From Exiguobacterium mexicanum (GTDB lineage Bacteria > Bacillota > Bacilli > Exiguobacteriales > Exiguobacteriaceae): a stretch of 64,000 bases of DNA. Position numbers and translations under genes: made by a program. Under the pieces are notes generated by a model. It saw only the letters and a list, made by a program, of their open reading frames with translations, was not told the DNA's origin and made no database searches. This document shows positions 4,827-64,000 of the stretch, one piece after another; within the stretch, counting starts at the first letter, position 1, and every line of letters starts with the position of its first letter. The DNA is taken from assembly GCF_005960665.1 (NCBI RefSeq), contig NZ_CP040676.1, positions 72,501 to 136,500 on the forward strand, read 5' to 3'.

Positions 4827-6107
4827 GTGATTGATCAGTGGTTACAACATAAATGGTTTCTCCGCATCATCGCACTTGCTTTAGCCATCCTGCTTTATTT
4901 CATGGTCGCCGAAACGAGTTCGTCGACCAACTCCACGAATGCCCTCCCGATCGTCGGACAAAGTTCGATGACGCTCGACGTTCCCGTCGAAGTGTTCTTC
5001 GATGAGGTGCAGTACGTGGCATATAACGTTCCAGAAGAAATGAACGTTGAACTTCAAGGACCATCTAGCAGTTTAACGATGACGAAATTGGTGAAAGATT
5101 ATCAAGTCTTCGTCGATTTAACGAATCTCGGGACCGGCTTCCACCGTGTTCCGGTTGAGGCACGCGGCTTTGGCGGAGACGTCAACGTCAAGCTCGAACG
5201 GGATACAGTAGAAATTTACATCGACCGTAAACAGACAATTGAAGTTCCCGTATCGGTCAACCTTTTGAACAAAGAGCAGTTGCCAGAAGGGAAAGTGGTC
5301 GGTGACGCCGATATTGAACCGGCAACGGTGAAAGTGTCGGGCGGTGCCAGTCGGATTCAAAACGTCAAAGAGATCACGTTGAACGTCGATGTCGCCAACC
5401 AAAGTCAAACGTTCACGCGAGAATTGACGCCGACGATTTTAGATGCGAACGGCAATCCGCTCAACGTGACTGTTGAACCGAACATCATCAGTGTGTCGGT
5501 CCCGGTCTACGAACAAAGTGCCGTCTTCCCGATCGAAGCAGTCACGACTGGTGAAGTGGCCGACGATTACAGACTGGTCGATACGTTGCTTGAAGAGACG
5601 GAAGTCCGTGTCTTTGCGCCACAAGACGTGCTCGATGCGATCGACACCGTGGAGACGGAGCCGATTGATTTAGACGGCATCGACAAGACCGGGAAAGTGA
5701 CCGCCAATCTCGCTTTGCCAGAAGGCGCTTCATCCCTTGCGACAAAGCAAGTGGAAGTCCAATTGCTCGTCCGGGCTGCAGATGAGACGCGAGACGACAC
5801 AGGCGAATTGACGGAACGGGTTCGCTTGACGGTCCCTGTGACCGTGCGGGGGTATGACCGGACCAACTTTACGCTCCAAGCTCCTGAAGTGATTGGAGTG
5901 ACGTTGTCCGGGAAGCGATCCCTGTTGGAAAACATCACGTCGAACAGTGTGAGTGTGACCTTGGACTTGACAGGTCTCCCGAGCGGACTGCATGGGGTCG
6001 ACGTCGATTATGAAGTACCAAAAGGTGTGACCGTCGTCTCACCGAAAACGATCGACATTGAGTTGACGAGTGTCGATGAACAAACCGAAACGTCCTCGAT
6101 TCAATGA
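4827..6107 (+). CDS. cdaR: CdaA regulatory protein CdaR (YbbR domains)
   Basis: Extracytoplasmic regulator that binds CdaA and tunes c-di-AMP output. It starts with GTG directly after the cdaA stop. It has one N-terminal membrane helix (about 10-27) followed by successive YbbR-type beta domains, seen as repeated VPVSVNLL/VPVYEQ/VPVTVRGY-type strands across 426 residues. Upstream SD AAAAAAGGGGGG lies inside the cdaA end. Family known from Bacillus and Listeria; the domain count is not resolved by eye. Confidence 0.93.
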   Translation: MIDQWLQHKWFLRIIALALAILLYFMVAETSSSTNSTNALPIVGQSSMTLDVPVEVFFDEVQYVAYNVPEEMNVELQGPSSSLTMTKLVKDYQVFVDLTNLGTGFHRVPVEARGFGGDVNVKLERDTVEIYIDRKQTIEVPVSVNLLNKEQLPEGKVVGDADIEPATVKVSGGASRIQNVKEITLNVDVANQSQTFTRELTPTILDANGNPLNVTVEPNIISVSVPVYEQSAVFPIEAVTTGEVADDYRLVDTLLEETEVRVFAPQDVLDAIDTVETEPIDLDGIDKTGKVTANLALPEGASSLATKQVEVQLLVRAADETRDDTGELTERVRLTVPVTVRGYDRTNFTLQAPEVIGVTLSGKRSLLENITSNSVSVTLDLTGLPSGLHGVDVDYEVPKGVTVVSPKTIDIELTSVDEQTETSSIQ

Positions 6108-6142
6108 GGCGTTCAATCATACAAAAGTGAGGAATTGAATTC

Positions 6143-7501
6143 ATGGGTAAATATTTTGGAACTGATGGAGTCCGCGGTGTCGCGAACTCAGAATTGACAG
6201 CAGAATTAGCATATCGTTTAGGTCGTGCGGGCGGCTACGTGTTATCGAAACACTTGCCAGCCGGCGAACAGCCAAAAGTTTTGATTGGCCGTGACACACG
6301 CATTTCAGGCCACATGCTTGAAGGTGCACTCATCGCGGGTCTCCTATCAATCGGAGCCGAAGTGATGCGTCTCGGCGTCATCTCGACGCCAGGTGTCGCT
6401 TATTTGACGAAGTCGCTTGATGCAACAGCCGGTGTCATGATCTCGGCATCGCACAACCCGGTCGCGGATAACGGCATCAAGTTCTTTGGTAGCGACGGCT
6501 TCAAGCTCGATGACGCGACAGAAGCGGAAATCGAAGCGATTTTGGATGCGGCGGAAGACACGTTGCCACGCCCGGTCGGGAAAGACCTCGGCTTTGTCTC
6601 GGATTACTATGAAGGTGCACAGAAGTACCTTCAAATGTTGAAACAGACGGTCGACGAAGATTTCGACGGTCTCCATATTGCCCTTGACTGCGCCCATGGT
6701 GCGACGAGCGGATTGGCAGCACGTCTGTTTGCTGACCTCGAGGCGAACGTCTCGACGATCGGAAACTCGCCGAACGGCTTGAACATCAACGAAGGTGTCG
6801 GCTCGACACACCCTGAGCACTTGGCACAGTTCGTTCGTGAAAAAGGAGCGGACATGGGTCTCGCCTTTGACGGCGACGGCGACCGCTTGATTGCGATCGA
6901 TGAGAACGGTGATATCGTCGACGGCGATAAAATCATGTACATCTGCGGGAAGTACTTGAGCGAGAAAGGCCGTCTCAAAGACAACACAATCGTTGCGACG
7001 GTCATGAGTAACCTCGGCTTCCATAAAGCGGTTGAAGATGCTGGCATGACGGCGCTTCAGACGGCGGTCGGTGACCGTTATGTCGTCGAAGAGATGAAGA
7101 AACACAACTACACACTCGGTGGCGAGCAGTCGGGTCACCTCATCTTCCTCGACCACTCGACGACGGGAGACGGCATGCTCTCTGGCGTTCAACTCGCTCA
7201 AATCGTGAAGACGACAGGCCGCAAGTTGTCAGAACTCGCGGCTGAGATGCCGGTCTACCCACAAAAACTCGTCAACATCCGTGTCACGGATAAGAATGAA
7301 GCGATGAACGGCGACCGTGTGCTCGCGACGATTCAAGAAGCGGAAGCAGAAATGAACGGCAACGGCCGCATCCTCGTCCGCGCTTCTGGTACGGAGCCGC
7401 TCGTACGCGTCATGGCGGAAGCACCGACTTCGGAAGAATGTGACCGTTATGTCGAACGAATCGCACAAGTTGTCCGCGAAGATTACGGTGTAGAAGGATA
7501 A
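6143..7501 (+). CDS. glmM: phosphoglucosamine mutase GlmM
   Basis: Interconverts glucosamine-6-phosphate and glucosamine-1-phosphate for UDP-GlcNAc and peptidoglycan synthesis. It has the phosphoserine loop [15 protein letters not shown] (catalytic Ser103), the metal loop DGDGDR (about 245), the sugar-binding GGEQSGH and the phosphate-binding [11 protein letters not shown] near the C-terminus. 452 residues, typical length. ATG lies behind GTGAGG, 35 nt after cdaR. In other bacteria GlmM binds and inhibits CdaA, which explains the conserved linkage. Confidence 0.96.
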
Positions 7502-7525
7502 TTCTGTCGAAATAGGGAATAAAAC

Positions 7526-7555
7526 AAGGGAATCCGTCCTCGGGTTCCCTTTTTG
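7526..7555 (+). terminator. terminator after glmM
   Basis: A stem of 11 pairs, AAGGGAATCCG against CGGGTTCCCTT with one T-G, followed by TTTTT. It makes glmS independent of the cdaA operon. Confidence 0.9.
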
Positions 7556-7590
7556 TTTCCGTTTTGTCACTGTGAAATTATGTGATTTTC

Positions 7591-7619
7591 TTGACGAATG
7601 GAGGTGTGATTTGTACTAT
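7591..7619 (+). promoter_or_regulatory. sigma-A promoter of glmS
   Basis: TTGACG (7591-7596), 17-bp spacer, TACTAT (7614-7619). Transcription would start near 7626, upstream of the ribozyme. Confidence 0.83.
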
Positions 7620-7659
7620 TAAGAGCGTGACCTTAGAAACGGAAGGACACCCAGTACGA

Positions 7660-7808
7660 AACAAGCGCCAGAACTCTTCGGAGTTGACGAGGTTGGAGGT
7701 TATCGAGTTTTCGGCGGATGCCTCCTAGTCGCCTGTCACGACTACAAGCAAACCCTCAAAACGCCCGGGCGACCGGACGGCCAAAGGGGAGCGCGTTGAC
7801 AGCTCTTA
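7660..7808 (+). ncRNA. glmS self-cleaving ribozyme/riboswitch
   Basis: Cuts its own mRNA when glucosamine-6-phosphate is bound, lowering GlmS. The core blocks match the B. subtilis ribozyme: AGCGCCAGAACT (7664 on), AGTTGACGAGGTTGGAGGTT and TTTTCGGCGGATGCCTCC. The predicted cleavage is between A7664 and G7665. The P4-type domain runs to about 7808. The 3' limit is approximate. Only about 38 nt of the 5' product would precede the cut. Confidence 0.93.
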
Positions 7809-7859
7809 GAAAAAGCCCGTTTCCTTTTTCGAGAAATCGAATATAGAGGAGATTTTTGT

Positions 7860-9656
7860 ATGTGTGGAATTGTAGGAATGATTGGGAATACCGGAGCGAA
7901 GGAAATCCTTCTCAAAGGTCTTGAAAAACTCGAGTACCGCGGTTACGACTCGGCAGGTCTTGCTTTGATGCATGATAACGTGAACGTGCATAAAGAAGTC
8001 GGCCGGATTGCTGCGCTACGCGAAGTCGTCCCAGCAGAAGTAGATGGCACGATTGGAATCGGCCACACACGATGGGCAACACACGGGGTGCCGAGCGTGC
8101 CGAACGCCCACCCGCACCAGAGCACGACGGGCCGCTTCACGCTCGTCCACAACGGTGTCATCGAGAACGACGAACAGATCAAGGCGACACTCGACGTGCC
8201 GTTCCTCTCGGAGACGGACACGGAAGTCATCGTCCAGTTGATGGAGAAGAACTTCGTCGAACTCGGCGACGTCGAGGCGGCGTTCCGCAAGACGTTGTCT
8301 GAGCTCCACGGCTCGTACGCGATCGCGATGATCGACTCGGAAGATAAAGAACGCCTCTATATCGGCAAGAACAAGTCACCGCTCCTCGTCGGACTCGGCG
8401 ACGGCACGTTCAACGTCGTGGCGTCTGACGCGATGGCGATGCTCCAAGTGACGGACCAGTACCTCGAGCTCCACGACGGCGAAATCGTCATCTTGACGCG
8501 CGAATCGGCGACGATCAAGACACTCGACGGCGAAGTCCTCGAACGTGCCCCGTATACGGCCGAGATCGATGCGTCAGACATCGAGAAAGGCACGTACGCG
8601 CACTACATGTTGAAAGAGATGGACGAGCAACCAGCCGTCATCCGCAACATCATCCAGCACTACCAGAACGACGCCGGTGACATCGAGCTCACGGAAGGCG
8701 TGCGCTCGCTCGTCTCAGAAGCGGACCGCATCTATATCGTCGCCTGTGGTACGAGCTACCACGCTGGTCTCGTCGGCAAGCAATTGATTGAGCGCGTCGC
8801 AGGTGTGCCGACAGAAGTGCACGTCGCTTCAGAATTCGGTTACAACATGCCGCTCCTCACGGAGAAGCCGTTGTTCCTCTTCATCTCACAATCAGGTGAG
8901 ACAGCGGACAGCCGGGCCGTCCTCGTCGAAGTGAAGAAGCGCGGCTACAAGGCGCTCACACTCACGAACGTTGCCGGTTCGACGCTCTCACGTGAAGCGA
9001 ACGAAACGATGCTCCTCCACGCCGGCCCGGAGATCGCGGTCGCATCGACGAAAGCATACACGGCCCAAATCGCCGTGCTCGCCATCCTCGCCTACGACAT
9101 CGCTCGTGCGAACGGCAAGAAGCTTCCGTTTGACCTCATGACAGAGCTCGCGCGTGTCGCGACGATCATGGACTCGGTCATGGCTCAAAAAGAAATCTTT
9201 GAGCAATTGGCAGACAAGTTCTTGAAAGAGTCGCGCAACGCGTTCTTCCTCGGTCGCGGCATGGACTCATACGTCGGTCTCGAAGGTGCCCTCAAGCTCA
9301 AAGAGATCTCGTATATCCAAGCAGAAGGCTACCCAGGTGGTGAGCTCAAGCACGGACCGATCGCCTTGATTGAAGATGGCACACCGGTCATCACGCTCGT
9401 CTCGCAACCGAACACGCACCTCAACATCCGTGGAAACATCAAGGAAGTTGTCGCCCGTGGCGCCGTTGCCTGCACGATCTCGATGGAAGGCATGGAACAC
9501 GAGAGTGATTCATTCGTCTTGCCGCGTGTCGAGCCACTGCTCACGCCGCTCGTGACGGTATTACCGCTTCAACTCATCTCGTATTACGCGGCTCTTGCGC
9601 GTGATTGCGATGTCGACAAGCCACGTAACTTGGCGAAATCAGTCACAGTCGAATAA
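7860..9656 (+). CDS. glmS: glutamine-fructose-6-phosphate aminotransferase GlmS
   Basis: Makes glucosamine-6-phosphate from fructose-6-phosphate and glutamine, the committed step to UDP-GlcNAc. Cys2 (MCGIVGMIG) is the glutaminase nucleophile. Two SIS sugar-binding domains follow ([16 protein letters not shown]), and the end [13 protein letters not shown] is the typical C-terminus. 598 residues, normal length. ATG is preceded by GAGGAG. Much of the gene uses C-ending codons heavily, fitting high expression. It is controlled by the upstream ribozyme. Confidence 0.97.
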
Positions 9657-9663
9657 ACGGTAG

Positions 9664-9694
9664 GCCAAGATCTTTCGGGATCTTGGCTTTTTTT
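9664..9694 (+). terminator. glmS terminator
   Basis: GCCAAGATC and GATCTTGGC with a short loop, then TTTTTTT. Confidence 0.9.
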
Positions 9695-9701
9695 GTTGTG
9701 A

Positions 9702-9730
9702 TTTACGTCATGCGAACCGGCTTGTATACT
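9702..9730 (+). promoter_or_regulatory. candidate promoter of the leader peptide-MFS unit
   Basis: TTTACG (9702-9707), 17 bp, TATACT (9725-9730). An alternative -10, TATAAC, lies at 9736-9741. Confidence 0.55.
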
Positions 9731-9759
9731 GAAGGTATAACGACTAAGGAGAGAACGCC

Positions 9760-9813
9760 ATGCGAATCCAACTAGTTAACACATTCATCCTGCCGGAGGA
9801 CGTGCGTTCATAA
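9760..9813 (+). CDS. 17-residue leader peptide of the MFS gene
   Basis: The peptide is MRIQLVNTFILPEDVRS, starting at ATG behind AAGGAGAG (spacer about 6) and ending with TAA at 9811-9813. It has a full ribosome binding site and a promoter, and ends 60 nt before the MFS start. Codons 12-14 contain one arm (CGGAGGA, 9794-9800) of the downstream RNA switch. Short leaders of this kind control several antibiotic-inducible Gram-positive resistance genes. That this one senses a ribosome-targeting drug is inference. Confidence 0.72.
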   Translation: MRIQLVNTFILPEDVRS

Positions 9814-9876
9814 GTTGGCCACCTCCTCCGATGATTCACTGTATTGGAACAAACTATCGGAGGAACCATACAATTG
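9793..9876 (+). promoter_or_regulatory. three-arm translational attenuator
   Basis: Arm 1, CGGAGGA, is at 9794-9800 inside the leader. Arm 2, TCCTCCGAT, is at 9824-9832. Arm 3, ATCGGAGGA, is at 9856-9864 and is the ribosome binding site of the MFS gene. Arm 2 can pair with arm 1 (7 bp) or arm 3 (9 bp), but not both. Pairing 2:3 would hide the MFS start, and pairing 1:2 would free it. Confidence 0.68.
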
Positions 9877-60573: not shown

Positions 60574-60603
60574 AAGACTGTTTTCTTCAGTCTTCTTTTT
60601 TGT
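60572..60603 (+). terminator. terminator of the 50-residue gene
   Basis: AGAAGACTG and CAGTCTTCT with a 7-nt loop, then TTTTTT; it lies between convergent genes. Confidence 0.85.
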
Positions 60604-60988
60604 ATATCGATTTTACAAAAAATGCTGTCGGCAACAAAATCCCGATGGCCGCTTCGAGCAAGGCGAACAACCGGGCCGGACCGATTGGCAGCAGGTCGCC
60701 GAATCCGATAGACAGCAACGTGACCCCGCTGAAGTAAAGCAGATTGCGCCAGTTCGGATCGACCGCGTTCATCGTCTCGAGTGACGTCACCAATATGACG
60801 CCATCGCGTGATAGCGCGTAGTAAATCAAGGCAAACCCGATCATGACGCCGAGTAGGCTGACGAACAAGTGGCTGAACAAGCGCATATCGAAGCCGGTCT
60901 GTCTATACGTTTGGCGCCGAAAGAAGGTAAACACGTTCAAGCCGACGAATAATAGGGCAATCGTCAATAAAATGGAATTCACGCCCAT
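60587..60988 (-). CDS. two-helix potassium channel (Ion_trans_2)
   Basis: A 133-residue protein with about three helices: 5-23, 40-62 and 100-128. The pore segment SGVTLLSIGFGDLLPIGPARL has SIGFGD where most channels have TVGYGD, close to the variants of bacterial K+ channels. No cytoplasmic RCK or ligand domain follows. ATG is preceded by GGGAG. Confidence 0.85.
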   Translation of the reverse strand: MGVNSILLTIALLFVGLNVFTFFRRQTYRQTGFDMRLFSHLFVSLLGVMIGFALIYYALSRDGVILVTSLETMNAVDPNWRNLLYFSGVTLLSIGFGDLLPIGPARLFALLEAAIGILLPTAFFVKSIYKKED

Positions 60989-61092
60989 TTCTCCCTTCTG
61001 TGACAGTCTGTACTATGTTGTTTCCCTGATCGTTCACCGTCAAACGGACCGATTCACACCAAGACGGATTCATTCAACAAGGAGGTGTCCGA

Positions 61093-61920
61093 GTGCGACG
61101 ATGTTTAGTGAGCGGCTTATTGTTCATCTTCTTTTTAGGAGGATGTACGACGAAAGAGCCGTTTGATTTTGATGAGATCCATTCCTATAAGATTTTTTAT
61201 AACATGCCGACCGAGGCGATCATTGAAGACATGGCCCGATACGACCTCGTCATCATCGAACCGATTTGGTATACGCCGGAACAGATTGAGACGATCCGCT
61301 CGAACGGGACGAAAGTGCTCGGCTATATTAACGTGATGGAAGCAGATACGTGGAATCGTGCGCTCATCGGCCAAATGGACAAAGACGATTTCTTCTATCG
61401 GGACGGGGAACGCATCTATTTCCCGAAATGGGATTCGTATTTGACGGATATCAGCTCGTCCGACTTCCGTAAAATTTTAATCCGTGAAATTCAAAAACAA
61501 GTCATCAATAAACATCTGGACGGAATTTTCCTCGACACGGTCGGTGATATCGATGACGTCCACCTCGATTATCCGGACGACTTAGAAGAACAGCTGGCTG
61601 GGCTCGAGGCCTTTTTACAAGCGATTGAAAAGGCATATCCGGGCGTCCCAGTCGTCCAAAACTGGGGCATCGAGACGCTCGAACGAACGAGTGCGCCTTA
61701 CGTGGAAGGCTTCATGTGGGAAGGTTTTAACTACACGGAAATCACGTCCGACTCTTGGTCGATGGAGATGCTCGATCGAATGAACGCGATTCAAGACGAA
61801 TATGGAATCGCCGTCCTCACCGTCTCGGACCAAGAAGAGGCGACAAGTCGGGACATGGCCGAGGCGAACGGATTCATCCATTATCACGAACCAACTTATT
61901 ACAATACGTGGGATTTTTAG
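61093..61920 (+). CDS. PelA-like GH114 lipoprotein (exopolysaccharide hydrolase)
   Basis: A 275-residue lipoprotein. The signal peptide ends in lipobox LGGC (Cys18). The remainder is a GH114 (endo-alpha-1,4-polygalactosaminidase-like) TIM barrel: YDLVIIEPIWYTPEQIETIR, KVLGYINVMEAD, DGIFLDTVGD (catalytic-region Asp), VVQNWGIETL, FMWEGFNY. This corresponds to the hydrolase domain of PelA; the deacetylase domain is missing. It starts with GTG behind AAGGAGGTG and precedes pelD- and pelE-like genes. It would trim or process the Pel polymer outside the cell. Confidence 0.8.
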   Translation: MRRCLVSGLLFIFFLGGCTTKEPFDFDEIHSYKIFYNMPTEAIIEDMARYDLVIIEPIWYTPEQIETIRSNGTKVLGYINVMEADTWNRALIGQMDKDDFFYRDGERIYFPKWDSYLTDISSSDFRKILIREIQKQVINKHLDGIFLDTVGDIDDVHLDYPDDLEEQLAGLEAFLQAIEKAYPGVPVVQNWGIETLERTSAPYVEGFMWEGFNYTEITSDSWSMEMLDRMNAIQDEYGIAVLTVSDQEEATSRDMAEANGFIHYHEPTYYNTWDF

Positions 61921-61959
61921 GGGGTAATTAGGGGAAAGGAAGATAAGGGACTATGTATA

Positions 61960-61975
61960 CCTGTCCGAGGGCAGG
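61960..61975 (+). other. hairpin in the pelD leader
   Basis: CCTGTC-CGAG-GGCAGG in the 108-nt gap between the GH114 gene and pelD. No T run follows, so it is not a terminator. Confidence 0.45.
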
Positions 61976-62028
61976 GGATCATCCCGCATTAAAACTGAAG
62001 AGATGTTATCCATGAGGAGGGGATTATC

Positions 62029-63249
62029 ATTCTGTACGCTCAAGACCGTCCATGGCTCAAATGGGTCGAGATTCTTGTCGTGTTCGCACTATTGATCGGA
62101 ATCGATTTATTCTTCAGCCTAGGCACGATTCAAAATGAACTGAACTTGTTTTATGTGGCCGCCATCCTGTTCGCGCTCAGGTATGGAACGATTTTCGGCT
62201 TAATCAGTTTCGGCATTTTGCTCCTCTATAAAGTGTTATACACCGGCTTAATGGGAGGGGACATCTTCCTGTTGTTCTACGATACAAACTCACTTCTTAC
62301 ACTGTTTTACTACTTCGCCATCACTGTCATCGTCGGGTTGTTCAGCACCTCATTTCGAGAGCGTTACGAAATCAGCCAGTTCCGCAACGAAGAACTGAAA
62401 GATGAAAACACGTATTTGAAAGAGACCGTCGATTTACTCAACACTTCGCAAACCACACTTCGTCAAAAACTACTTCAATCCGAGTACAGCTTGAACCAAT
62501 TGTATGAACTGGCCGTATCGCTTGATTTGCCGCATCCAGAATTGATTCGGAGCGAGACGATTCGCCTGTTGAAAAAAACGTTCCTCGCGAGTGACGTCGC
62601 CATCTACCACGTCGACCGTTCCCAGAAGTCGATGCGCCTCTTGATTCGCCAAACGGACAAGAAAGAGTTTCCGCAAACGATTTTTCTCGATGAGGCGTCG
62701 AGTATGTTCAAACGGTTCTTCCAAGTGCAAGAGACGACGCTCCGTCAACTCGACGACGAGGACACGGACCCGATGTTGCTCGCACCGATCATCGTGGACG
62801 GGACGACCCGAGAAGTCGTCGTCATCAAACGGTTGCCGCTTCGGAAATTGACGACCGATGACTTGCACGTTCTCAACATCCTCTTCTCGTGGATTGGCAC
62901 ACGCATTCAAAATGCCGAGAACCTGATTCGTAAAGAGCAGCACGAGAAGATGCATAAAGGCACCTCGTTTTATAAGAAAACAGCGTTCATAGAACTCGTC
63001 GCCATCCAAGAACAAAAGAAGATTCACCATGGACAGCCGTACATCGTCCTCGAATATCCGCTCGGGTATGAGCCTGTCTCACTCGAGAGTATCGAGGCCA
63101 TCGTCCATTCGTATTTACGGGAGATCGATGTCGTCGGGTACGACCCTGATGAGAATAAGCTGTTGCTCTTACTCCCAGGAACGAGTGAAGAACACCGTCA
63201 ACGGATCTATGACCGGATCGAAGGGATTTTGATCCAGAAGGGAGTGTGA
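62029..63249 (+). CDS. PelD-like c-di-GMP receptor, non-AUG start
   Basis: A membrane regulator of about 406 residues. Four helices (about 12-105 including KWVEILVVFALLIGIDLFF) are followed by a coiled linker, a GAF domain (about 170-300) and a degenerate GGDEF domain. At 63118-63129 it keeps RxxD (REID), five residues before PDENK which replaces GGDEF. The frame has no ATG/GTG/TTG between a stop at 61996 and GTG 62080. GTG 62080 would cut helix 1 and has no ribosome binding site. GAGGAGGGG at 62013-62021 points to ATT 62029 (or CTG 62032). Confidence 0.82.
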   Translation: MLYAQDRPWLKWVEILVVFALLIGIDLFFSLGTIQNELNLFYVAAILFALRYGTIFGLISFGILLLYKVLYTGLMGGDIFLLFYDTNSLLTLFYYFAITVIVGLFSTSFRERYEISQFRNEELKDENTYLKETVDLLNTSQTTLRQKLLQSEYSLNQLYELAVSLDLPHPELIRSETIRLLKKTFLASDVAIYHVDRSQKSMRLLIRQTDKKEFPQTIFLDEASSMFKRFFQVQETTLRQLDDEDTDPMLLAPIIVDGTTREVVVIKRLPLRKLTTDDLHVLNILFSWIGTRIQNAENLIRKEQHEKMHKGTSFYKKTAFIELVAIQEQKKIHHGQPYIVLEYPLGYEPVSLESIEAIVHSYLREIDVVGYDPDENKLLLLLPGTSEEHRQRIYDRIEGILIQKGV

Positions 63250-63253
63250 CGGG

Positions 63254-64000
63254 ATGGAGTCTACCATTCGTCTCGTATTGATCGGGATTTATGTCGTTCA
63301 TGCACTGCTCGCCTTCGGATTATTGATCACGTTGAAACGAAGAATGAAAGCGCCGGATTATGGCATCGCGGTGGTGGCGCTCAGCTTCGGTCTGTTCTTA
63401 CCGTTTCTAGCCGAACTTGCCGTCTATGCGGTGTATCGGCTTGCTGAACGGTTCGGTCGGAGCGGTCTGATTGAAGACTATGACGACTATATCGACTTCA
63501 AGGTCGTCAACTATGAACAGATTCGTCATGAAGCGAGCAGCAGCAGTCATCTGTTACCGCTCACCGACGCCATCAACTCGAAAGATCCGGCTATCCGCAA
63601 ACACTCGATTTTGACGCACGTCAACCAGTCGATTGACCAGCAAGGCAAGTATTTGCAGATGGGACTTGAGAGCACGGACAGCGAGACTGTCCACTACGCC
63701 GCGGCGACAATGAACATCTTGATCGATCAATATGAACAAGAATTGAAACACGCCAAACGCGAGTACGACTTAGGTAACCCAGACACGATTCGACGGCTTG
63801 CGACGATTTATAAACGCATGATCCATAGTGAACTCATCACCGAGGTCATGTTGAAGGACAAGCGAGGCGCATGGCTGGAAGAATTATTGAAAGCGAAGAC
63901 GCTCTATCCGCCTTCGCCCTGGATTTACGAAGACTTGAACGAGATTTATCTCACGTTAGAGCGCCCCAAAGAGCAATTGAACATTTTAAAAGAGTACGTC
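63254..64000 (+). CDS. PelE-like membrane TPR protein (truncated by window end)
   Basis: Open to the window end (249 codons). Two N-terminal helices (about 5-25 and 35-58) are followed by a soluble helical region with TPR-like pairs: AINSKDPAIRKHSILTHVNQSI, YAAATMNILIDQYEQELKHAKREY, RLATIYKRMIHSELI, PWIYEDLNEIYLTLERPKEQL. PelE has the same form and lies next to PelD in known pel loci. ATG is behind AAGGGAG, 4 nt after the pelD stop. pelF and pelG would be expected next. Confidence 0.75.
   Translation, partial: MESTIRLVLIGIYVVHALLAFGLLITLKRRMKAPDYGIAVVALSFGLFLPFLAELAVYAVYRLAERFGRSGLIEDYDDYIDFKVVNYEQIRHEASSSSHLLPLTDAINSKDPAIRKHSILTHVNQSIDQQGKYLQMGLESTDSETVHYAAATMNILIDQYEQELKHAKREYDLGNPDTIRRLATIYKRMIHSELITEVMLKDKRGAWLEELLKAKTLYPPSPWIYEDLNEIYLTLERPKEQLNILKEYV

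What the first reader, a model, noticed from the sequence alone, without database searches (positions are those of the whole stretch)
61093..64000. Pel-type exopolysaccharide locus in a Gram-positive chromosome
Seen: a GH114 lipoprotein, a GAF plus degenerate GGDEF membrane protein and a two-helix TPR protein in a row, matching PelA (hydrolase part), PelD and PelE. Known: a pel cluster has been characterised in Bacillus cereus. Here the GH114 unit is a separate lipoprotein placed first and lacks the PelA deacetylase, a variant layout. The rest (pelF, pelG) would lie beyond 64000.
Basis: partly seen in the sequence, partly recalled or inferred. Interest (0 to 1): 0.75.

Follow-up and report, generated by a model that had tools for sequence, protein, structure and literature searches.

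The report
Complete Pel biofilm operon in Exiguobacterium
The window's right end holds the first genes of a complete Gram-positive operon for the sticky biofilm sugar Pel, a known kind of system, here with its sugar-cutting enzyme placed at the front as a probable membrane-anchored lipoprotein and with the gene for its on-switch apparently read from an unusual start codon.

Summary
The window's own genome continues past 64000 with a 615-aa PelA-type deacetylase, PelF and PelG, so the gene order is pelA_H-D-E-A_DA-F-G on one strand. The deacetylase is not lacking: it is the fourth gene, as in Bacillus cereus pelDEA_DAFG. PelD keeps the c-di-GMP I-site residues (R364, D367, R396) with a degenerate GGDEF, and Foldseek's six best PDB matches are all Pseudomonas PelD. 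The host is an Exiguobacterium (nearest named loci).

Not standard: (1) the GH114 hydrolase is collinear, first and has a lipobox (10 of 10 type-1 loci). Among 398 Bacilli genomes this order was seen only in 10 genomes of this genus; 13 other linked GH114 genes lie on the opposite strand. (2) pelD most likely starts at ATT (62029-62031) in 9 of 10 type-1 loci, where the tenth and 15 of 15 divergent-type relatives have ATG. AUU starts lower translation elsewhere, so it may throttle the Pel synthase; that step is inference. A new variant of a known kind, moderately interesting.

The parts
61093..61920 (+). pelA_H: GH114 protein, 275 aa, GTG start, lipobox LGGC, conserved acidic residues D148 and E210
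   Evidence: PF03537 37.7 bits (cut-off 27); PelA 5tcb E 1.8e-6; residues; lipobox
62014..62022 (+). Shine-Dalgarno-like GAGGAGGGG of pelD; GGAGG ends at 62020, 8 nt before ATT 62029
   Evidence: sequence; GGAGGGGATT identical in 10 of 10 type-1 loci
62029..62031 (+). probable non-canonical start codon ATT of pelD
   Evidence: ATT in 9 of 10 type-1 loci, ATG in the tenth and in 15 of 15 divergent-type relatives; codon periodicity downstream; one locus has no canonical start before codon 37
62029..63249 (+). pelD: N-terminal hydrophobic helices (four by eye), GAF, degenerate GGDEF (PDENK) with I-site R364-x-x-D367 and R396; 406 aa from ATT
63254..64000 (+). pelE, cut by the window end (312 aa in full, to L003:5193): two N-terminal helices plus TPR
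   Evidence: The rest lies outside the window in L003: pelA_DA 5175-7022, pelF 7019-8437, pelG 8397-9866 (window position = L003 position + 58999)

Best explanation
A complete six-gene Pel exopolysaccharide operon of the Gram-positive type (pelA_H-D-E-A_DA-F-G) in an Exiguobacterium. By analogy with B. cereus and P. aeruginosa: c-di-GMP binds the I-site of PelD; PelD with PelE switches on the glycosyltransferase PelF, which makes a GalNAc polymer; PelG moves it across the membrane; the surface deacetylase PelA_DA makes it partly cationic; the GH114 hydrolase trims or releases it. Two lineage-specific traits are added. The hydrolase is probably tethered to the cell surface as a lipoprotein and sits in the same direction at the head of the row, so it could be made together with the synthase. 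pelD is probably translated from AUU, which would keep the receptor, and so the synthase, scarce. Shown by sequence: gene set, order, conserved active-site and I-site residues, lipobox, conserved ATT. Inferred: Pel as product, co-transcription, c-di-GMP control, surface tethering, low PelD translation.
For: PelF and PelG over curated cut-offs. PelA_DA E 5.3e-152 to B. cereus PelA_DA 9zau; the catalytic residues that paper names (D262, D263, HxxxH, P405, R458, H488, D491) are all identical in that alignment, by my hand count (numbers from passages of PMC13254593). PelD: R364, D367, R396 invariant in 19 of 19 aligned sequences, at the spacing of B. cereus R363, D366, R395 (PMC7112168 section 10); Foldseek ranks 1-6 are P. 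aeruginosa PelD, best E 2.8e-7. PelE: TPR by profile. GH114: PelA hydrolase 5tcb E 1.8e-6. Gene spacing: D-E gap 4 nt; E/A_DA, A_DA/F and F/G overlap. 22 GGDEF matches and 2 galE matches over cut-off elsewhere in the genome. Layout counts. Lipobox. ATT start.
Against: No experiment here shows Pel, c-di-GMP binding or an operon transcript. The PelD model has modest confidence (pLDDT 77, pTM 0.44), and its PelD matches have high rmsd (about 16 A) and low TM-scores (0.27-0.38), so they rest on rank and local geometry. In the VIA-align second look the 50 rows shown are mostly phytochrome GAF-type structures and none is PelD. PelE has no match to a solved PelE; its Foldseek hits are mostly generic TPR, best E 3.6e-3. 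The hydrolase-pelD gap is 108 nt, so the hydrolase could be a separate transcript. galE is not next to the operon as in B. cereus. The motif GGAGG-N8-ATT alone is near chance in this genome (38 against 30 control matches).
Confidence: 0.9

Rival explanations
1. A pel-like operon that makes a different polymer, or one no longer in use.
For: Substrate cannot be read from sequence. Of 19 genomes of the genus, 5 lack PelF over cut-off and PelG, so the locus is dispensable. PMC7112168 (section 6) says of some variant loci that it is unclear whether they work or make another polymer.
Against: The core proteins are full length with catalytic and I-site residues kept, and the whole set is kept in 10 genomes.
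Confidence: 0.08
2. PelD starts at GTG 62080 and the ATT is only part of the untranslated leader.
For: GTG is a normal start and stands at codon 17 in 9 of 10 type-1 loci. GGAGG-N8-ATT by itself is near chance.
Against: L087 has GTC there, no canonical start until codon 37, and a TAG five codons before the ATT. Codons 2-16 vary mostly at third positions (2, 1 and 9 variable sites; binomial p 0.004, relatedness ignored), with 7 synonymous-only and 2 replacement columns of 15. Relatives of the divergent type have ATG at the ATT's place in 15 of 15. Starting at GTG would cut into the first helix of the model (8-28). The strong SD stands before the ATT, none by eye before the GTG.
Confidence: 0.08
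3. The collinear lipoprotein hydrolase is a simple inversion of the divergent pelA_H of other Bacilli rather than a duplicate of the secreted GH114 found elsewhere in the same genomes.
For: Same family and same side of the operon; the second genus of the same family (g2) and Halobacillus, Marinococcus and Pseudalkalibacillus have it divergent.
Against: The tree cannot decide: the lipoprotein clade (100/100) and the secreted paralogue clade (98/91) join the divergent ones in unresolved order; neither lipoprotein plus paralogue as one clade (AU p 0.31) nor the divergent ones as one clade (p 0.33) is rejected.
Confidence: 0.4

Closest known systems
Bacillus cereus ATCC 10987 pelDEA_DAFG with divergent pelA_H (BCE_5582) (PMC7112168: sections 6, 10, part 1 of 2 of section 12, and passages)
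   Same: Same five core genes in the same order; separate deacetylase and hydrolase; PelD I-site residues at matching spacing
   Different: Here the hydrolase gene is collinear and first and has a lipobox; pelD probably starts at ATT; galE is not adjacent. Whether B. cereus PelA_H is a lipoprotein was not checked
Pseudomonas aeruginosa pelABCDEFG (recalled; solved PelD and PelA matched)
   Same: PelA hydrolase family, PelD, PelF, PelG
   Different: There PelA is one two-domain protein, and PelB and PelC outer-membrane parts exist
Streptococcus intermedius pel cluster (PMC12345266, passages)
   Same: Gram-positive pelDEA_DAFG
   Different: By PMC7112168 streptococcal PelD lacks GGDEF and most have an epimerase-like N-terminal domain; the window PelD has GGDEF and no such domain, while the Exiguobacterium 'type 3' loci have a similarly long PelD frame
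Genes with conserved non-canonical starts: S. aureus cvfC1 (AUU) and ccpN (AUA) (PMC13009471, passages); Streptomyces sigR (GTC, IF3-repressed; PMC5472188, abstract)
   Same: Conserved weak start codon, in S. aureus behind an extended SD, in a regulatory or possibly regulatory gene
   Different: pelD is a membrane receptor of a polysaccharide synthase; effect on translation not measured

Membership tests
Gram-positive Pel operon (pelDEA_DAFG) | PelF glycosyltransferase | tested here: met
   NF038011 374 bits, cut-off 100
Gram-positive Pel operon (pelDEA_DAFG) | PelG transporter | tested here: met
   PF16933 454 bits, cut-off 29
Gram-positive Pel operon (pelDEA_DAFG) | PelA_DA deacetylase as its own protein between E and F | tested here: met
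   9zau E 5.3e-152, named catalytic residues identical by hand count (residue numbers)
Gram-positive Pel operon (pelDEA_DAFG) | PelD with membrane helices, GAF, degenerate GGDEF and I-site RxxD | tested here: met
   model confidence modest
Gram-positive Pel operon (pelDEA_DAFG) | PelE: TPR protein between D and A_DA | tested here: met
   profile to TPR chains and position; no solved PelE was matched, so the name rests on position
Gram-positive Pel operon (pelDEA_DAFG) | Core order D-E-A_DA-F-G on one strand | tested here: met
   same in 10 of 10 type-1 loci
Gram-positive Pel operon (pelDEA_DAFG) | Makes partly deacetylated GalNAc polymer under c-di-GMP control | not testable with these tools
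   needs experiment
Usual accessory layout: pelA_H on the opposite strand beside the operon | opposite strand | tested here: not met
   same strand, first; opposite strand in 13 of the 23 PelG matches with a GH114 within about 10 kb
PelA hydrolase (GH114-type, PelA_H) | GH domain with conserved acidic residues | tested here: met
   D148 in 38 of 38 and E210 in 37 of 38 aligned rows, the other a gap; activity not tested
Genes with conserved AUU start | AUU conserved at the start position behind an SD in relatives | tested here: met
   9 of 10 type-1 loci
Genes with conserved AUU start | translation begins at AUU and is weaker than with AUG | not testable with these tools
   needs reporter or ribosome profiling

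The most novel reading that the evidence does not exclude
In one Exiguobacterium lineage the c-di-GMP receptor of a Pel synthase is held down by a conserved AUU start codon, so Pel output is set by initiation-factor (IF3) discrimination as well as by c-di-GMP, while a surface-tethered Pel hydrolase is made from the head of the same operon. infC itself seems to start with ATT at the same 8-nt spacing in these genomes, which would let the IF3 level tune both.
Probability: 0.45. Interest if true: 0.6.

Novelty: new variant of a known kind. Interest (0 to 1): 0.42.

Why it matters
It places the Gram-positive Pel family in a genus that the main texts of the founding survey and its companion do not name (term searches; their supplementary species tables were not readable here, so it may be listed there). 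It also gives a natural variant in which the Pel hydrolase is probably tethered and co-made with the synthase, which bears on the open question of what the hydrolase is for. The conserved ATT start would be a directly testable extra layer of control; a gene caller limited to ATG, GTG and TTG would miss the first 17 residues of PelD, as the mechanical reading did.

Tried and rejected
Considered and rejected: 'no PelA deacetylase' (one search shows it). Riboswitch control: Rfam at gathering cut-offs finds in L003 only a TPP riboswitch after pelG. Plasmid origin: PelG matches on plasmids are all under 60% identity (19 records). Promoter and terminator patterns over L003:1700-10200 are no more frequent than in shuffles (3 against 7.5, 8 against 9.1). 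Where the lipoprotein hydrolase came from: the tree did not decide. The ATT motif by itself is near chance genome-wide, so only conservation counts. infC as a control: script 51 printed nothing because of a wrong filter; redone. The lipobox scan looked at only the first 70 residues of each frame, too few for some; redone up to the barrel with the same result.

Weak or negative: PelD alone gives no meaningful PDB sequence match (two coiled-coil chains, E 0.9 and 1.2); only a profile reaches GGDEF. PF00990 does not find PelD among its 22 matches. In VIA-align the 50 rows shown hold no PelD. PelE Foldseek has no match at E 0.001 or better.

Rows dropped or left out: five Lachnospiraceae or other MAG loci (L054-L057, L059) of the 23 named loci gave no GH114 match by phmmer. 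Identical GH114 rows were merged before the tree, the GH114 of L047 was not put in (its frame ends early), nor was the remote one of L096. The start-codon survey used 10 type-1 and 15 divergent-type pelD; type-3 pelD was not examined. L085 and L086 repeat L047 and L045.

Literature: 8 searches used, listings capped. For a non-ATG pelD start or an AUU start in an exopolysaccharide gene I searched (4 of 4 papers listed; 12 of 19; 10 of 18; 10 of 1,840); the rows listed show none for pelD. The listing shows a Yersinia rcsD biofilm paper with the words AUU start codon (not read). For pel in Exiguobacterium I searched (12 of 323 listed; 12 of 438; 10 of 42); none in the rows listed. PMC10714750 has no 'pel' in its main text (term search).
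Full report
OBSERVATION. On + at the right end of the window are three genes in a row: 61093-61920, 62080-63249 as an ATG/GTG/TTG reading, and 63254 to beyond 64000. Pfam gives GH114 to the first (37.7 bits, cut-off 27) and GAF_3 to the second (E 1.6e-8); the third has only sub-threshold TPR. A profile of 19 relatives takes the second to a GGDEF domain (6khu E 1.5e-6), and one of 15 relatives takes the third to TPR chains. The first has lipobox LGGC.

PAST THE EDGE. The window is G000:C4:72501-136500. The next stretch (L003) holds a 615-aa protein, then a 472-aa and a 489-aa one, then what look by eye like thiamine genes. The 615-aa protein matches the solved B. cereus PelA_DA (9zau) at E 5.3e-152. 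The residues that the B. cereus paper names (D262, D263, the HxxxH histidines, P405, R458, H488, D491; passages) are identical in that alignment once its chain numbering is raised by 25; this is my hand count, checked by the D262-H488 distance. The 472-aa protein is PelF by NF038011 (374 bits, cut-off 100) and the 489-aa one PelG by PF16933 (454 bits, cut-off 29).

PELD. An AlphaFold model from alignment A1 (pLDDT 77, pTM 0.44) has as its six best Foldseek matches in the PDB only P. aeruginosa PelD chains (entries 4eu0, 4etz, 4etx, 4dn0, 4dmz; E 2.8e-7 to 3.0e-6; rmsd about 16 A, TM 0.27-0.38, so the domains are placed differently or the model is loose). The VIA-align second look shows GAF-type photoreceptors instead. 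R364, E365, D367 and R396 are invariant in 19 of 19 sequences. B. cereus PelD needs R363, D366 and R395 (PMC7112168 section 10), the same spacing. The place of GGDEF reads PDENK here. So it is a receptor-type, not an enzyme-type, domain (inference). The genome has 22 GGDEF matches, so likely c-di-GMP makers exist.

HOST AND RELATIVES. Named PelF relatives at 87-96% identity are seven Exiguobacterium records. In the genus sample, 14 of 19 genomes have PelF over cut-off and 14 of 19 have PelG. Three operon types occur in the genus (with places): type 1, hydrolase collinear and first (10 loci in 10 genomes, the window's among them); type 2, hydrolase divergent (G012, G016, second locus of G015); type 3, no GH114 near and a PelD frame of 713-733 aa (G002, G003, second locus of G008).

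HOW UNUSUAL IS THE LAYOUT. In 398 Bacilli genomes (a sample of the class), PelG over cut-off has 55 matches in 52 genomes; three of them are partial or weak (G384, the second of G063, G306). Comparing places with GH114, 23 of the 55 have a GH114 match within about 10 kb: 10 collinear upstream (all in this genus), 9 divergent upstream, 4 downstream on the opposite strand; 32 have none. In the 23 named loci, 7 are collinear (Exiguobacterium), 11 divergent (Halobacillus, Marinococcus, Pseudalkalibacillus, two Exiguobacterium) and 5 without a GH114 match. A recent paper says that in Gram-positives the hydrolase is frequently encoded divergently, upstream or downstream (PMC12345266 passage). The lipobox LGGC is in 10 of 10 type-1 hydrolases, and no lipobox-like motif precedes the barrel in 14 divergent, 10 secreted-paralogue and 4 outgroup rows. 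So placement at the operon head goes with a lipobox in this sample, though as one clade it may be a single event.

SECOND HYDROLASE. The ten type-1 genomes, and none of the other nine, also carry an unlinked GH114: signal-peptide-like N-terminus without lipobox, a Thr/Lys/Pro/Ala/Glu repeat linker (24-bp unit, 12.5 copies in the window's genome) and a Lys/His-rich tail. Its relation to the lipoprotein is unresolved (38-row tree).

START CODON. In the window 108 nt separate the hydrolase stop from the ATT. This spacer varies strongly among the ten type-1 loci, except for GGAGGGGATT-NNN-AT(T/G) directly before conserved coding sequence. At the place where 15 of 15 divergent-type relatives have ATG, nine type-1 loci have ATT and one (L039) ATG. 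In the nine ATT loci the first downstream in-frame canonical start is at codon 17 (GTG, eight loci) or codon 37 (L087); in L087 a TAG five codons before the ATT closes the frame. L041 alone has an upstream GTG, nine codons before. Codons 2-16 vary at 2, 1 and 9 sites by codon position; 7 columns change only synonymously and 2 change the residue, against 2 and 9 or 0 and 11 in the shifted frames; binomial p 0.004, relatedness ignored. In 12 of 12 infC loci read, GGAGGTGCTAACC-ATT stands at the probable infC start with the same 8-nt spacing (19 of 19 genomes have infC); an in-frame ATG lies inside that SD-like stretch, so the infC start is itself an inference. That infC starts with AUU in other bacteria is recalled. 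The motif alone occurs 38 times in the genome against 30 for its reversed control, so it carries no weight without conservation. In S. aureus, AUU and AUA starts gave about 10% of AUG reporter output in poor medium, more for ccpN in rich medium (PMC13009471 passages); in Streptomyces, a GTC start of sigR is repressed by IF3 (PMC5472188 abstract). I hold the ATT start as about 0.85-0.9 likely, and a real regulatory throttle as about 0.45. L039, the one with ATG, comes from G015, which also carries a second pel operon; one case only, so no conclusion.

MECHANISM. Shown: genes, order, residues. From knowledge of Pel systems (PMC7112168 sections, PMC12345266 passages): PelD-PelE-PelF-PelG make and export the polymer on c-di-GMP, PelA_DA deacetylates, and the hydrolase limits biofilm (its loss raises biofilm in B. 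cereus; but loss of the S. intermedius hydrolase gave no phenotype, same call). Inferred here: that this product is Pel, that a tethered hydrolase trims at the cell surface, and that AUU holds PelD low.

VERDICT. A genuine, complete Pel operon; known kind, new arrangement, with one unexpected conserved feature worth a cheap test.

Noticed in passing
L004:3200-4681 (G000:C4 about 338.2-339.7 kb): Second, unlinked GH114 protein with a 12.5-copy 24-bp repeat linker and a Lys/His-rich tail ending in FFKF or FFKL; present in exactly the ten type-1 genomes of 19.
   Followed up: partly
L081, L082, L083 (G003, G002, G008): A third kind of pel operon in the genus: PelD frame of 713-733 aa, no GH114 near; G008 and G015 each carry two different pel operons.
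   Followed up: partly
L099-L110, infC 5' ends: infC in 12 of 12 loci read appears to start at ATT behind GGAGGTG with the same 8-nt spacing as pelD.
   Followed up: partly
window 61042-61049: AAACGGAC, identical in 10 of 10 type-1 loci within a conserved block, 44-51 nt before the hydrolase start; possible promoter or operator.
   Followed up: no
L003:9928-10032: TPP riboswitch (85.6 bits) directly after pelG, before genes that look by eye like tenA, thiM, thiD and thiE.
   Followed up: no
window 60587-60988, - strand: 133-aa Ion_trans_2 (ion-channel-like) gene divergent from the operon.
   Followed up: no
L096 (G354), and G028: Sub-threshold PelG matches over most of the model with a GH114 on the same contig and, in L096, a 685-aa frame with a PelF match: possibly a remote Pel-like locus.
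   Followed up: no
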